Source: Kineococcus xinjiangensis
Lineage (GTDB): Bacteria; Actinomycetota; Actinomycetes; Actinomycetales; Kineococcaceae
NCBI RefSeq assembly: GCF_002934625.1
Contig: NZ_PTJD01000016.1
Location: 37,332 to 101,331 of the forward strand
Length of the DNA: 64,000 nt
Reading direction: 5' to 3'
The notes under the pieces are model-generated. The model saw nothing but the letters and a program-made list of their open reading frames with translations. It made no database searches and was not told the DNA's origin. Positions 42,520-63,925 of the stretch are shown one piece after another (within the stretch, counting starts at the first letter, position 1; the number at the start of each line of letters is the position of its first letter). The translations under genes and the position numbers were made by a program.

Positions 42520-42592
42520 CACTCTCACGCCGCGCTGAGTGCGCGATCATGACAGCCGGCGAACGTCCTCAACTGTCGAAGAGCGGATGTTC
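42520..42592 (+). repeat. Array repeat 1
   Basis: Contains CACGCCGCGCTGAG, the core GCGCGATCATG (42541-42551), GCCGGCGAACG and the right end CTGTCGAAGAGCGGATGTTC. It lies between the first and second array genes. Confidence 0.85.
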
Positions 42593-42622
42593 TGGCTTGG
42601 GAGTGACTGCCAGGATCCAGGC

Positions 42623-43465
42623 GTGCCGCCCGAGCCGTACCGCCCGCTCCCGCTCGACCTCGATGACGTTCGCTACGCCCACGGGCCGGACTCGTCCCGC
42701 CGGCCTGACGTGCCCGTCGGCGAGACCATCGAGCTGCAGTGGGACCGCAGCACCGTCTACCCAGGGACGTCGCGGAAGGTCTGGATCCACGTCCCGGCCG
42801 GGCACGATCCCTCCCGGCCGGCCGCCCTGATGGTGTTCAACGACGGCTGGTGGTACCTCGACCCCGCCGCTGAGTGCCGCGGGGCGATCGTCTTGGACAA
42901 CCTCGTCCACCGCGGCGTCATCCCCGCCACGATCGGAGTCTTCGTCGACCCCGGCGTCGTCGTCGGGGCGGAGCAGCCGAAGAACCGCAACGTGGAGTAC
43001 GACGCCTTCGACGACCGCTATGCGACCTTCCTGCTCACCGAGATCATCCCGCTGGTCACTTCGCGGTACGCCGTCACCTACGACCCCGAGCAGTGGGGCA
43101 TCTGCGGAGGCAGCAGCGGCGGCAACGCCGCCTTCACCGTCGCCTGGATGCGCCCGGACCGCTTCCGCCGCGCCGTGTGCTTCCTGTCCAGCTTCGCCCA
43201 GATGCCCGGCGGCAACCCCTACCCCGACCGCATCGCGCGCACCACGCCGAAGCCGCTGCGGATCTTCCTGCAGGCCGGGCACCGCGACCTGGGCTGGAAC
43301 GAGCCGACAGGCAACTGGCTCGCGGAGAACCTGCGCGTGGCCGCCGCTCTGGCCGAGACCGGTTACGACTTCCGACTCGTCCTCGGCGACGGCGGCCACA
43401 GCCCCAACCACGGCGGCGTCCTGCTTCCCGACGCGCTGCACTGGACCCTGGCTCCACCCGGCTGA
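42623..43465 (+). CDS. Esterase family protein (enterochelin esterase-like fold)
   Basis: A 280-residue alpha/beta hydrolase of the Fes/esterase-D type. The nucleophile Ser is in CGGSSGGNAAF (near residue 160), the N-terminal strand region includes IELQWDRSTVYPGTSRKVW, and GDGGHSPNHGG near 260 carries the catalytic His. No signal peptide is seen, so it is probably cytoplasmic. GTG at 42623 has CAGGA upstream; an upstream ATG at 42587 lies inside the repeat. The substrate is unknown; siderophore esters are one possibility. Confidence 0.85.
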   Translation: MPPEPYRPLPLDLDDVRYAHGPDSSRRPDVPVGETIELQWDRSTVYPGTSRKVWIHVPAGHDPSRPAALMVFNDGWWYLDPAAECRGAIVLDNLVHRGVIPATIGVFVDPGVVVGAEQPKNRNVEYDAFDDRYATFLLTEIIPLVTSRYAVTYDPEQWGICGGSSGGNAAFTVAWMRPDRFRRAVCFLSSFAQMPGGNPYPDRIARTTPKPLRIFLQAGHRDLGWNEPTGNWLAENLRVAAALAETGYDFRLVLGDGGHSPNHGGVLLPDALHWTLAPPG

Positions 43466-43500
43466 GCACCCCTGACGCCACCTGGGGCGCCTGACCAGTG

Positions 43501-43572
43501 CACGCTCATGCCGCTGATGGCGAGCGATCATGACGGGCCGCGGACGCACGACTTTGTCGAAGAGCGAGCGGT
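43501..43572 (+). repeat. Array repeat 2
   Basis: Left arm CACGCTCATGCCGC, core GAGCGATCATG, then GGGCCGCGGACGCACG and the right end ACTTTGTCGAAGAGCGAGCG. CGCTC on the left pairs with GAGCG on the right. Confidence 0.85.
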
Positions 43573-43643
43573 CGGACAGGGGGCAACGAGTAGCTGCAGC
43601 AGGGCCCTGCCTCGAACCGAGGTGCAGGTGAGACGCTCAGCCG

Positions 43644-43979
43644 GTGGAGGAGTCCTACCGCCCCGTCGCGCTGCGCGTCTTCGCTGAGTGGAGCGATCAG
43701 GACCCGGTATGGGACAGCGACCTCGACCACATGGGCACGGTCGACCCGACCGAGCTCGGCGCCAGTCCCGGGCTCGTCGAGCAGCTGCGGGCATGGAACA
43801 AGCGCTTCCACGCTCTGGGGTGGACCGACTACCGCTGGCCAGATGCCGAGCAGGAGCGAGCCTGGCAGCAGGAGGGCCTGCGCCTGGCCTACCAGCTGCA
43901 GAACGAGCTATCCGACATTGAGATCAGCTACGGCCACGACGGCGACGACCGGCCCCTGCGGCAACGCCGCGGACCTTGA
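43644..43979 (+). CDS. Hypothetical protein
   Basis: A 111-residue acidic protein. The start LRVFAEWSDQDPVWD is followed by two helices (LGASPGLVEQLRAWNKRFHA; EQERAWQQEGLRLAYQLQNEL) and a DIEISYGHDGDD end. The pattern resembles small immunity-type proteins, but no family is recognised. GTG at 43644 is the start. It is the only gene between repeats 2 and 3. Confidence 0.6.
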   Translation: MEESYRPVALRVFAEWSDQDPVWDSDLDHMGTVDPTELGASPGLVEQLRAWNKRFHALGWTDYRWPDAEQERAWQQEGLRLAYQLQNELSDIEISYGHDGDDRPLRQRRGP

Positions 43980-43984
43980 GACAA

Positions 43985-61956: not shown

Positions 61957-61964
61957 TGTGCCGG

Positions 61965-62600
61965 TCAGGGGCGGTAGGCCCCGGCGCGGGCTGCGGCGGT
62001 GGCCGTGGCGGCGGCATGCTCAGCATGGGTGGGATCGATGTCCTCGCCTGTGAGCAGACGGTGGTACAGGGGCGCGGAGACCGCGCGGATCACCTCTCGC
62101 GCGTCGGTGCCTGCGGGGAGCTCACCGCGCTCAACGGCCGCGTACACGCACGGCTCCCACTCGCTGATGCGGGCCTCGTAGAAGCGGCGCAGCGCCTCGG
62201 CGGTGTCGGTGTCGGTGAGTGCAGCGGCCAGGATCGCGCGGAAGAGGGCTCCTTGCCGGGCGTCGGTGAGGGTGCGCTGCACCAGGTGCGCGTTGGCCAG
62301 CAGGTCCCCGGCCAGGGAGCCGGTGTCGCTGCGCGGTGACGACTGCTCGGCCATGTCGGCCAGCAGGTCAGCGATCAGCGCGGGGACCGTTCGCCAGCGG
62401 CGGTAGACAGTCGTCTTGCCGATCCCGGCGCGGCGCGCGATGTCGGCGAGGTCCAGACGGGCGAGACCGACTTCGATGAGTGCATCCTCCGTCGCGCGCA
62501 GCGCAGCAGCCCGCACCCGTGCCGTGCGCCCGCCGGGGCGAGACGCGGCCGGCAGGCGGGCGGCACCGTCTGCCGCCATGTCGTCGACCCCCACAACCAT
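61965..62600 (-). CDS. TetR/AcrR-family regulator
   Basis: A 211-residue TetR-type repressor. The helix-turn-helix near 35-80 reads LARLDLADIARRAGIGKTTV then YRRWRTVPALIADLL. The C-terminal domain (about 95-205) is helical. It diverges from the aldo-keto reductase at 62758, with two operator-like palindromes between them, one of which overlaps its own ATG at 62600. That suggests self-repression. A later ATG at 62579 (MAADGAAR) is possible. Confidence 0.92.
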   Translation of the reverse strand: MVVGVDDMAADGAARLPAASRPGGRTARVRAAALRATEDALIEVGLARLDLADIARRAGIGKTTVYRRWRTVPALIADLLADMAEQSSPRSDTGSLAGDLLANAHLVQRTLTDARQGALFRAILAAALTDTDTAEALRRFYEARISEWEPCVYAAVERGELPAGTDAREVIRAVSAPLYHRLLTGEDIDPTHAEHAAATATAAARAGAYRP

Positions 62601-62675
62601 AACGGCACTGTAGTCCCACTAGTCGCGGAGTCGTGTTACGGTGCGACGACTAACGGCACCATGGTCCCGTTAGTC
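62597..62675. promoter_or_regulatory. Twin TetR operators in the divergent promoter
   Basis: GACTAACGG-CACCATGGTC-CCGTTAGTC (62648-62675) is a nearly perfect 28-base palindrome. A second, weaker copy with TAACGGCAC, TGTAGTCC and CACTAGTC lies at 62600-62624 and overlaps the TetR start codon. Two sites 48 bases apart between divergent genes are typical for a TetR repressor that controls itself and its neighbour. Confidence 0.8.
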
Positions 62676-62757
62676 AGGGGGCGTGTCCTCGCCCCCACCA
62701 CGGAGCGAGGACGTCAGGAGCCGGTGGCGGCACCGGCGGCGGATGAAGGAGGCAGCG

Positions 62758-63807
62758 ATGGAGCATCGACGTCTGGGCCGATCGGGACTGCAGGTGCCGA
62801 TCTTGAGCTTCGGCACGGGCACCTTCGGCGGCAGCGGCCCGCTGTTCGGTGCGTGGGGGGACACCGATGCCCGCCAGGCCCGCCGGCTGGTCGACATCTG
62901 CCTGGAGGCCGGGGTAACGATGTTCGACACCGCCGACGTCTACTCCGACGGCGCCTCCGAGGAAGTCCTCGGCCAGGCCATCAAGGGCCGGCGCGACGAC
63001 GTCCTGATCTCCACCAAAACCAGCCTGCCCACCGGTCCCGGCCCCCACGAGGCGGGCTCCTCGCGTCCGAGGCTGATCCGGGCCTGCGAGGACGCGCTGC
63101 GCCGGCTCGGCACCGACGTCATCGACCTCTTCCAACTGCACGCCTTCGACGCCGGAACGCCGGTGGAGGAAGTGCTGGCCACCCTCGACGACCTCGTGCG
63201 CGCCGGCAAGGTCCGCTACGTCGGGGTGTCCAACTTCTCCGGCTGGCAGCTGATGAAGTCCCTAGCCACCGCCGAGCGTCACGGCTGGCCCCGCTACGTG
63301 GCCCACCAGGTGTACTACTCCCTCATCGGCCGCGACTACGAGTGGGAGCTGATGCCGCTGGGGATCGACCAGCAGGTCGGGGCGCTGGTGTGGAGCCCGC
63401 TGGGCTGGGGCCGCCTCACCGGCAAGATCCGCCGGGGCCAGCCCCTGCCGGCGCAGAGCCGACTGCACGACACCGCCGACTACGGGCCCCCCGTCGACGA
63501 CGAGCACGTGTACCGCGTCGTCGACGTCCTCGACGAGATCGCCGCCGAAACAGGCTCCAGCGTGGCGCAGATCGCCCTGAGCTGGTTGCTCTCCCGCCCC
63601 ACGGTCTCCTCCGTGATCATCGGCGCCCGCACCGAAGAGCAACTGCGGCAGAACCTCGACGCCGCCGACCTCCGCCTCAGCCGCGAACAGGTCCAGCGCC
63701 TCGACGCCGCCAGTGCCACCACCGCCACCTACCCCTACTTCCCCTACCAGCGCCAGGAAGGCTTCGCCCGCCTCAACCCCTCACCGATTTCCGCCCTCGC
63801 GCCATGA
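62758..63807 (+). CDS. Aldo-keto reductase (Kv-beta-like)
   Basis: A 349-residue NADPH-dependent reductase. The catalytic tetrad is visible: Asp in FDTADVYSDG (near residue 60), Tyr of the same motif, Lys in LISTKTS (near 85) and His in LFQLHAFD (near 126). VGVSNFSGWQL near 157 and IIGARTEEQLRQNL near 286 are NADPH-site signatures. Such proteins reduce aldehydes and are often induced by toxic carbonyls. GAAGGAGG precedes the ATG at 62758. Divergent TetR gene and operators suggest ligand-induced expression. Confidence 0.95.
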   Translation: MEHRRLGRSGLQVPILSFGTGTFGGSGPLFGAWGDTDARQARRLVDICLEAGVTMFDTADVYSDGASEEVLGQAIKGRRDDVLISTKTSLPTGPGPHEAGSSRPRLIRACEDALRRLGTDVIDLFQLHAFDAGTPVEEVLATLDDLVRAGKVRYVGVSNFSGWQLMKSLATAERHGWPRYVAHQVYYSLIGRDYEWELMPLGIDQQVGALVWSPLGWGRLTGKIRRGQPLPAQSRLHDTADYGPPVDDEHVYRVVDVLDEIAAETGSSVAQIALSWLLSRPTVSSVIIGARTEEQLRQNLDAADLRLSREQVQRLDAASATTATYPYFPYQRQEGFARLNPSPISALAP

Positions 63808-63879
63808 CGCGCCGGCAGCCCCGGGCGGCAAGGAGCCCAGCGAAGTCGACCGCGTCTGCTGCATGATCTGGTGACACCG

Positions 63880-63925
63880 ACGAACATCCGACTTTGGCTC
63901 CCTTCTAAGTCAAGACGGGGTCTTG
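63880..63925 (+). repeat. Array repeat 25, left half, with a small hairpin
   Basis: GACGAACATCCGACTTTGG matches the left end of the array repeat, but the GATCATG core is absent. A hairpin (CAAGAC-ggg-GTCTTG, 63911-63925) follows. The last 75 bases of the window hold no recognisable gene. Confidence 0.6.

What the first reader, a model, noticed from the sequence alone, without database searches (positions are those of the whole stretch)
42520..63901. An integron-like array: a same-strand repeat separates every gene unit over 21 kb
Seen: 24 copies of a repeat with the core GCGCGATCATG (a few variants) plus half copies at 41589 and 63880. All are on the plus strand, while the genes between them point both ways. 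Each interval holds one gene or one two-gene unit (51387-53463, 57197-58413, 60777-61861, 61965-63807), with spacing of about 0.5-2.2 kb. No repeat lies left of 41.5 kb. Known: one-gene cassettes split by co-oriented sites define integrons, which are hardly known in actinomycetes. Inference: a mobile cassette system, integron-like or of a new type. Against a standard integron: no intI here, no clean GTTRRRY ends, and mixed gene direction.
Basis: partly seen in the sequence, partly recalled or inferred. Interest (0 to 1): 0.96.

Follow-up and report, generated by a model that had tools for sequence, protein, structure and literature searches.

The report
Integron-like gene cassettes in Kineococcus
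In a Kineococcus-like actinomycete, 24 copies of one DNA signpost, all facing the same way, divide 21 kb into small gene packages; in several relatives a recombinase gene sits among the same signposts, and copied packages mostly end at them, so the packages likely move as units by an integron-like system that probably arose separately from integrons.

Summary
The window holds 24 co-oriented sites of up to ~80 bp (42516-61945), a right half-site at 41590, and a left half-site at 63883 cut by an IS110-type insertion. The genome has at least 131 sites in about 21 clusters; 12 of 12 family genomes carry sites, 47 other genomes of the order only six stray weak hits (capped scans). Cassettes recur in other arrays (91-96% identical here, up to 99.8% in K. 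radiotolerans) with edges mostly at two fixed points, c1 after box A and c2 after box C.

All ten copies point the way the sites point; in nine of nine testable copies box C follows the stop codon by 17-27 nt, like intI-attI. Its nearest hits in the phage and plasmid collections are actinophage integrases (~45%), not IntI.

So it works like an integron but fails integron membership (no IntI over cut-off, no attC boxes or fold). Best reading: an integron-like cassette system of separate origin. Weak points: nothing was tested experimentally; the recombinase was not found in this genome or in K. radiotolerans.

The parts
42516..61945 (+). cassette array: 24 co-oriented sites separating small gene units
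41590..41615 (+). half-site, boxes C-D only: array head; in relatives the same half-site follows a recombinase gene
42516..42594 (+). site 1 (core at 42541)
43500..43575 (+). site 2 (core 43522)
43989..44032 (+). site 3 (core 44016), boxes A-B
44466..44542 (+). site 4 (core 44488)
45256..45305 (+). site 5 (core 45282)
45942..45990 (+). site 6 (core 45968)
46326..46406 (+). site 7 (core 46351)
46962..47001 (+). site 8 (core 46984), boxes A-B
47519..47591 (+). site 9 (core 47545)
49336..49414 (+). site 10 (core 49363)
49934..49995 (+). site 11 (core 49959)
50418..50498 (+). site 12 (core 50445)
51353..51398 (+). site 13 (core 51379), degenerate
   Evidence: 12 bits, E 0.0044
53541..53620 (+). 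site 14 (core 53567)
54211..54288 (+). site 15 (core 54237)
55023..55082 (+). site 16 (core 55034)
55782..55825 (+). site 17 (core 55807), boxes A-B
56566..56617 (+). site 18 (core 56592)
57109..57165 (+). site 19 (core 57133)
58502..58583 (+). site 20 (core 58529)
59669..59712 (+). site 21 (core 59696), boxes A-B
60138..60181 (+). site 22 (core 60164), boxes A-B
60692..60765 (+). site 23 (core 60715)
61883..61945 (+). site 24 (core 61908)
63883..63896 (+). left part of box A of a further site, interrupted by an IS110-type insertion
63897..64000 (.). end of the IS110-type insertion; contig C16 ends here
43526..44018 (+). cassette with a copy (96.4% over 494 bp) in another array, contig C17
49405..49928 (+). 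cassette with a copy (96.2% over 525 bp) in another array, contig C10
54264..54991 (+). cassette with a copy (95.1% over 728 bp) in another array, contig C1
51387..53463 (+). two-gene cassette: sigma-70-like protein and a second gene; 51352-51967 shared with C21 at 85.7%
57197..58413 (-). two-gene cassette: ECF-type sigma factor and an overlapping gene
47620..49271 (-). cassette gene: MurJ-like flippase
55198..55794 (-). cassette gene: barstar-like protein

Best explanation
This is an array of 24 co-oriented composite sites separating small gene units that likely move as single cassettes by site-specific recombination, predicted to be carried out by a tyrosine recombinase whose gene heads arrays of the same sites in related species. 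Shown: a full site holds two direct-repeat boxes, A and C, about 46 bp apart, each followed by an inverted partner (B, D). Shown: copies of cassettes in other arrays have edges mostly at the end of A (c1) or after C (c2), and the bases after the cut often differ between copies. Shown: in six of 12 family genomes a recombinase gene (or a piece of one) lies among the sites, on their strand, with box C just after its stop codon where the 3' end is in hand. Inferred: recombinase gene plus box C is a platform like intI-attI, a cassette circle enters and leaves at c1 or c2, and one strand exchange completed by replication is likelier than a double exchange because the spacers need not match. Inferred: in this genome, where the gene was not found, the arrays are served from an unassembled copy or are at rest, like integron arrays without integrase. 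Odds as I see them: cassettes move as units 0.85; this recombinase is the enzyme 0.65.
For: Array: 24 of 24 sites on +; 123 of 124 neighbouring pairs on one strand, among 145 aligned sites. Edges here: six pairs picked (its output was cut; two pairs share one cassette), 6 of 12 edges at box A/c1, 4 at c2, 2 fading 40-60 nt before a site (by eye). Edges in K. radiotolerans: 10 non-IS pairs, three of them among copies of one cassette; 9 of 10 3' edges within -12..+60 nt of the end of a box A in both copies, 5 of 10 5' edges within -30..+12 (6 counting a pair with two tandem boxes), chance 6% and 4% per edge in one copy (the box patterns were typed from seen sites); alignments. Cassettes shared between arrays on opposite strands and between this genome and K. 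radiotolerans (80.7%). Sites in 12 of 12 family genomes. Recombinase: ten copies or pieces in G001, G004, G005, G007 (3), G008 (3), G010, 10 of 10 on the strand of the neighbouring sites; motif of box C 17-27 nt after the stop in 9 of 9 copies whose 3' end is in hand, against 4.3% of random windows, though the copies share descent; model R2 sees the half-site there in 6 of 9. Five of nine have all catalytic residues (residues recalled). Copies are 90-95% identical between species whose XerD is 76-81% identical, so the gene has spread.
Against: No recombination was observed. PF00589 searches of this genome and of complete K. radiotolerans do not find the gene, yet K. radiotolerans has cassette copies of up to 99.8% identity. 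It was not found in the fetched parts of G002, G006, G009 and G011 either. Of nine copies two have broken frames, one is a 66-aa piece, one has lost a catalytic His. An element carrying its own integrase and using these sites as target could look similar. XerD is the only non-phage-type recombinase in all six genomes listed. Not every edge is at c1 or c2. Many sites lack a clear C-D half.
Confidence: 0.62

Rival explanations
1. The recombinase gene is a passenger, an integrative element that targets these sites, and the cassettes are moved in trans by the host XerD or an unknown enzyme.
For: XerD is in all six genomes with full PF00589 lists; the recombinase is missing from K. radiotolerans and this genome; its nearest hits among phages are phage integrases; IS110 elements target the same sites.
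Against: Every copy is on the strand of the sites and none was seen outside site context; the catalytic lysine of XerD is lost in G004 and G005 (residue recalled), which keep 15 and 17 sites. K. radiotolerans XerD has an altered tail.
Confidence: 0.2
2. A degenerate true integron: attC arrays without IntI (CALIN).
For: Co-oriented sites, small gene units, IS110-type insertion into the site as IS1111 elements do with attC.
Against: TIGR02249 best 73.6 bits against 265 in this genome, 52.8-54.7 for the array recombinase; RYYYAAC 8 of 145 and GTTRRRY 3 of 145, controls 1 and 0; fold z -0.41/-0.46 here and -0.09/-0.20 in K. radiotolerans, control -0.10 in both sets; own-end/own-start complementarity p 0.45, 42 cassettes; no consensus pairs in K. 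radiotolerans; genes in both directions.
Confidence: 0.04
3. Host Xer modules bounded by variant dif sites, as in Acinetobacter.
For: Box C shares GYCGAT.A with the genus dif arm.
Against: dif pattern (3 mismatches) hits one place in this genome, beside another Xer gene, none in arrays; sites do not alternate; K. radiotolerans has arrays but no dif match and no XerC.
Confidence: 0.06
4. RecA-type or slippage recombination between short repeats that serve another purpose.
For: Some K. radiotolerans sites are alike beyond box A.
Against: At several edges only about 14 bp are shared; moves between arrays on opposite strands; strand uniformity.
Confidence: 0.06
5. IS110-family elements move the cassettes by RNA-guided recombination.
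For: IS110 transposase genes in arrays here and in G008; three left and four right junctions at one point of box A.
Against: Cassettes carry no IS ends; the IS cuts four bases from c1.
Confidence: 0.02

Closest known systems
Integrons (intI-attI-attC cassette arrays) and CALIN
   Same: Tyrosine recombinase gene next to a site at the head, co-oriented sites between small gene units, tens of cassettes or more, mostly unrelated cargo, no need for matching spacers, arrays without integrase in some genomes.
   Different: Recombinase is not IntI and is encoded on the strand of the sites; no GTTRRRY/RYYYAAC boxes, no attC-type fold, genes in both directions, many dispersed arrays. [quoted passage not shown]
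dif (pdif) modules of Acinetobacter (listing and abstracts)
   Same: Gene modules between short sites worked by a tyrosine recombinase; inverted boxes around a short spacer (mostly 7 nt here).
   Different: Sites all face one way, are up to 80 bp with two box pairs, do not match the genus dif.
Tyrosine integrases of Arthrobacter and Gordonia phages
   Same: Nearest hits of the array recombinase in the phage collection: 110 records, best Arthrobacter ones about 45%.
   Different: There annotated as phage integrase genes; here repeated within cassette arrays next to a half-site.
IS1111-attC insertion sequences
   Same: An IS110/IS1111-family element inserts at one point and orientation of a cassette site.
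   Different: Target is box A of this site. Known from titles in the reference list of PMC11187229 (passages) and recall.

Membership tests
Integron / CALIN | IntI integrase | tested here: not met
   This genome: TIGR02249 best 73.6 bits, cut-off 265. Array recombinase of relatives: 52.8-54.7 bits. K. radiotolerans: PF00589 gives only XerD, a phage-type integrase and a Tyr-less Xer-like protein; TIGR02249 itself was not run there.
Integron / CALIN | attC end boxes RYYYAAC and GTTRRRY | tested here: not met
   8 of 145 and 3 of 145 sites, control stretches 1 and 0
Integron / CALIN | site folds as a single strand with paired R and L boxes | tested here: not met
   (a 5-pair A-B stem, no covariation)
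Integron / CALIN | recombinase gene beside a primary site at the head of the array | tested here: met
   Met by an unrelated recombinase in relatives; in this genome only the head half-site at 41590
Integron / CALIN | co-oriented sites between small gene units | tested here: met
Integron / CALIN | cassettes exchanged as units with edges at fixed points of the site | tested here: met
   with the exceptions counted
dif (pdif) modules | sites matching the chromosomal dif | tested here: not met
dif (pdif) modules | sites in alternating orientation (recalled) | tested here: not met
dif (pdif) modules | dependence on XerC/XerD | tested here: inconclusive
   Arrays where XerC and dif are absent (G003, G004); XerD in all six genomes listed, lysine lost in two
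Tyrosine-recombinase cassette system | recombination of the sites by the array recombinase | not testable with these tools
   needs an experiment

The most novel reading that the evidence does not exclude
A second, independently evolved integron: an actinophage-type tyrosine integrase, followed directly by a half-site that plays attI, runs arrays of tens to about a hundred gene cassettes throughout the Kineococcus family, with double-core sites unrelated to attC, two crossover points, and a platform that itself spreads between species.
Probability: 0.55. Interest if true: 0.94.

Novelty: new variant of a known kind. Interest (0 to 1): 0.87.

Why it matters
Integrons are the textbook system for stockpiling and shuffling gene cassettes and are almost absent from actinomycetes (PMC9024848). 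An array system with other sites and an unrelated recombinase in every one of the 12 family genomes examined would show that this way of evolving arose more than once, offers a reservoir of uncharacterised genes, and gives a recombinase and a site that can be tested directly. K. radiotolerans, sequenced in 2008, carries a dense array; the words 'repeat', 'integron' and 'cassette' do not occur in the main text of its genome paper (PMC2587704, passages).

Tried and rejected
True integron: rejected on IntI, boxes and fold. An attC-like pairing A-D and B-C was considered and not supported.

Array recombinase first misjudged: in my draft I called the recombinases of G008 and G005 a passenger. On checking, the half-site behind the gene and further copies in G007, G010 and G001 changed that reading; the odds were revised for it.

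Third Xer-like recombinase P0001 (C21): in 9 of 12 family genomes, a dif site beside it in 8 of 9 loci, the ninth cut short by its contig; most likely the dif recombinase.

L009-type Xer-like protein (C7): 8 of 12 family genomes below 1e-90, absent from G004; Cys at the Tyr position in 19 of 27 best hits. Not supported.

XerD: kept as a rival only.

P7 and P7b, first read as cassette edges, are IS110 junctions and are dropped from all counts. The IS pair of about 1,280 bp is left out (10 of 11 listed pairs used).

Common leader at array ends of this genome: none seen by eye at 11 upstream and 11 downstream ends. Serine recombinase here: one 48-aa open frame only; K. radiotolerans has two PinR-type recombinases according to its paper, which I did not map. 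PADLOC: 0 of 10. Plasmids: nothing for a K. radiotolerans array piece; only single-gene similarities, 9 records, for the window.

Limits of counts: searches scored 150 candidates per genome and one search scored 77, so site counts are lower bounds. Models R1 and R2 contain some of the sites that they find.

Paper searches for a prior description: (listings and abstracts); none listed describes this. The library lacks most subscription papers and preprints.
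Full report
Observation. In the window 17 exact copies of GCGCGATCATG, all on plus, lie between 42541 and 61908. With variants there are 24 sites; model R1, built from 27 sites of which 6 are in this window, finds these 24, all on plus. The window is positions 37332-101331 of contig C16, and C16 ends where the window ends.

The site. A full site is about 80 bp: box A (AACRYYCGACTTTGCCGC here; CACGGTCATCCCGC in K. 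radiotolerans), a spacer of 7 nt in most sites (89 of 145; 26 read as 10, 22 not readable by the rule used), box B (GCGCGATCATG here), about 20 nt, box C (TTTG or CATG, then YCGA), a few nt, box D (GCGGATG and variants). A and C are direct repeats, each followed by an inverted partner. In the 49 of 145 sites where box C was readable by the motif used, the core-to-c2 distance is 38-40 nt in 47. Many sites show only A-B.

Genome scale. This genome has 81 exact cores and at least 131 model hits at E<=0.01 and 143 at E<=0.05; only 150 candidates were scored, so these are lower bounds. By my reading 142 of the 143 lie in about 21 clusters on 18 contigs. Neighbouring sites less than 4 kb apart point the same way in 123 of 124 cases, median spacing 707 bp. 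R1 hits 10 of 12 family genomes and, once each and weakly, 6 of 47 other genomes of the order (77 candidates scored each). R2, built from 67 sites of other family members, finds 9-94 sites in 12 of 12 family genomes. Names: nearest named proteins to this genome are from Kineococcus sp. NUM-3379 and K. glutinatus.

Cassettes recur as units. Window cassettes 43526-44018, 49405-49928 and 54264-54991 have copies on C17, C10 and C1 at 96.4, 96.2 and 95.1%. Six pairs of this genome, picked from a cut listing, were aligned: by eye 6 of 12 edges fall at box A/c1, 4 at c2, 2 fade 40-60 nt before a site. In K. radiotolerans, seven stretches totalling 124 kb hold 92 R2 sites at E<=0.1, one strand per stretch (R2 includes some of them). 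Copies of 94-99.8% show identity up to CATCCCGC and, in several, different bases right after. Over 10 non-IS pairs, 9 of 10 3' edges lie within -12..+60 of the end of a box A in both copies, and 5 of 10 5' edges within -30..+12 (6 counting a pair with tandem boxes); chance is 6% and 4% per edge in one copy; three pairs concern one cassette. The remaining 5' edges lie 15-45 nt past a box A in at least one copy; one of them is at c2 by eye. Cassettes are shared between arrays on opposite strands and, at 80.7%, between this genome and K. radiotolerans.

A recombinase in the arrays. Checking the draft, I looked again at the tyrosine recombinases in arrays of G008 and G005. R2 places a C-D half-site directly behind the gene. 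Further copies were then found: ten copies or pieces in six of 12 family genomes, G001 (cut by the contig end), G004 (66 aa), G005, G007 (one whole, two broken), G008 (three), G010. All ten lie on the strand of the neighbouring sites. In the nine whose 3' end is in hand, the box C motif lies 17-27 nt after the stop codon; random windows of the same loci have it in 4.3%. The copies share descent, so these are not nine independent events. R2 itself sees the half-site in six of nine. Five of nine keep all catalytic residues (R, K, HxxR, H, Y); one of G008 has lost the first His (residues assigned from recall). NCBIfam has no model over its cut-off: XerC 115.6-122.7 of 335, IntI 52.8-54.7 of 265. 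Among solved structures XerD is nearest (1e-20), IntI4 far (2.5e-4). Phages: 110 records, Arthrobacter and Gordonia phages for nearly all, best Arthrobacter integrases about 45%. Plasmids: two Pseudonocardia records, about 40%. Identity between species is 90-95%, while XerD of G005, G007 and G008 is 76-81%: the gene has spread between species.

Reading. Recombinase gene plus box C resembles intI-attI. Since box C is also the second crossover point inside the sites, the c2 edges would be joins made at such a head box (inference). The window's left end is the same kind of half-site, at 41590, without a gene. The gene was not found in this genome (PF00589; 42 contigs, several ending at repeats in arrays) nor in K. 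radiotolerans, nor in the fetched parts of G002, G006, G009 and G011. K. radiotolerans, with near-identical cassette copies, is the main difficulty: either the gene was lost lately or another enzyme serves there.

Mechanism. The crossover is fixed to one motif and the bases after the cut often differ. That argues for a single exchange completed by replication rather than a Cre- or XerCD-type double exchange (inference from general knowledge). A folded strand as in attC is not supported.

XerD. It is the only recombinase apart from phage-type ones in all six genomes with PF00589 lists; orthology of the phage-type ones was not tested. Its catalytic lysine is lost in G004 and G005 (sequences as those named K. 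aurantiacus and K. vitellinus), which keep 15 and 17 sites. K. radiotolerans has a linear chromosome, no dif match, no XerC, and no dif-linked Xer.

IS110. Arrays here and in G008 carry IS110-family transposase genes. Three left junctions (the third shares 13 bases before other sequence) and four right junctions lie at one point of box A, in one orientation, as IS1111 elements do with attC (titles in PMC11187229).

Cargo. Of 26 array proteins given to Pfam, 14 have no family at E<=0.01; ten are over a cut-off (esterase, HAD, GNAT, MurJ, two sigma factors, barstar, DUF4440, TetR, aldo/keto reductase) and two are below it (Kelch, glyoxalase-like) (four further proteins lie left of the array).

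Known or new. Library searches list no description. It works like an integron; by the tests made it is neither an integron nor a dif-module system.

Noticed in passing
window 41180-41247; L022 17124-17224: A 69-bp copy (97%) covering the last 43 nt of a tRNA-Pro gene lies just left of the array; the intact gene is on C22 near a phage/ICE-type integrase, so this looks like an integration scar.
   Followed up: partly
G000:C21:39904-40914 and 41481-41502; L098-L106: A third Xer-like recombinase has a dif site beside it in 8 of 9 loci; it is absent from G003, G004 and G005, and no dif match was found in G003 and G004 (G005 was not in that search).
   Followed up: yes
XerD of G003, G004, G005 (L129, L130, L131): XerD of these species has an altered C-terminal tail and in two of three has lost the catalytic lysine.
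   Followed up: partly
G000:C7:248956-249984; P0121-P0147: A Kineococcus Xer-like protein has Cys at the catalytic Tyr position in 19 of the 27 best hits.
   Followed up: partly
contigs C16 end, C13, C22, C27, C28, C33; L117: IS110-type elements insert at one point and orientation of box A; several arrays are broken in the assembly there.
   Followed up: yes
G007:C1:470016, 165999, 170920, 78166, 2800271, 5354387: Adjacent pairs of tyrosine-recombinase genes recur in G007, resembling recombinase-in-trio elements (name recalled).
   Followed up: no
window 882-1003 (-): Glycine riboswitch, 41.2 bits.
   Followed up: no
window 41560-41600: An AT-rich stretch at the left half-site, unusual in a 73% GC window; no similar leader seen at other array ends.
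   Followed up: partly
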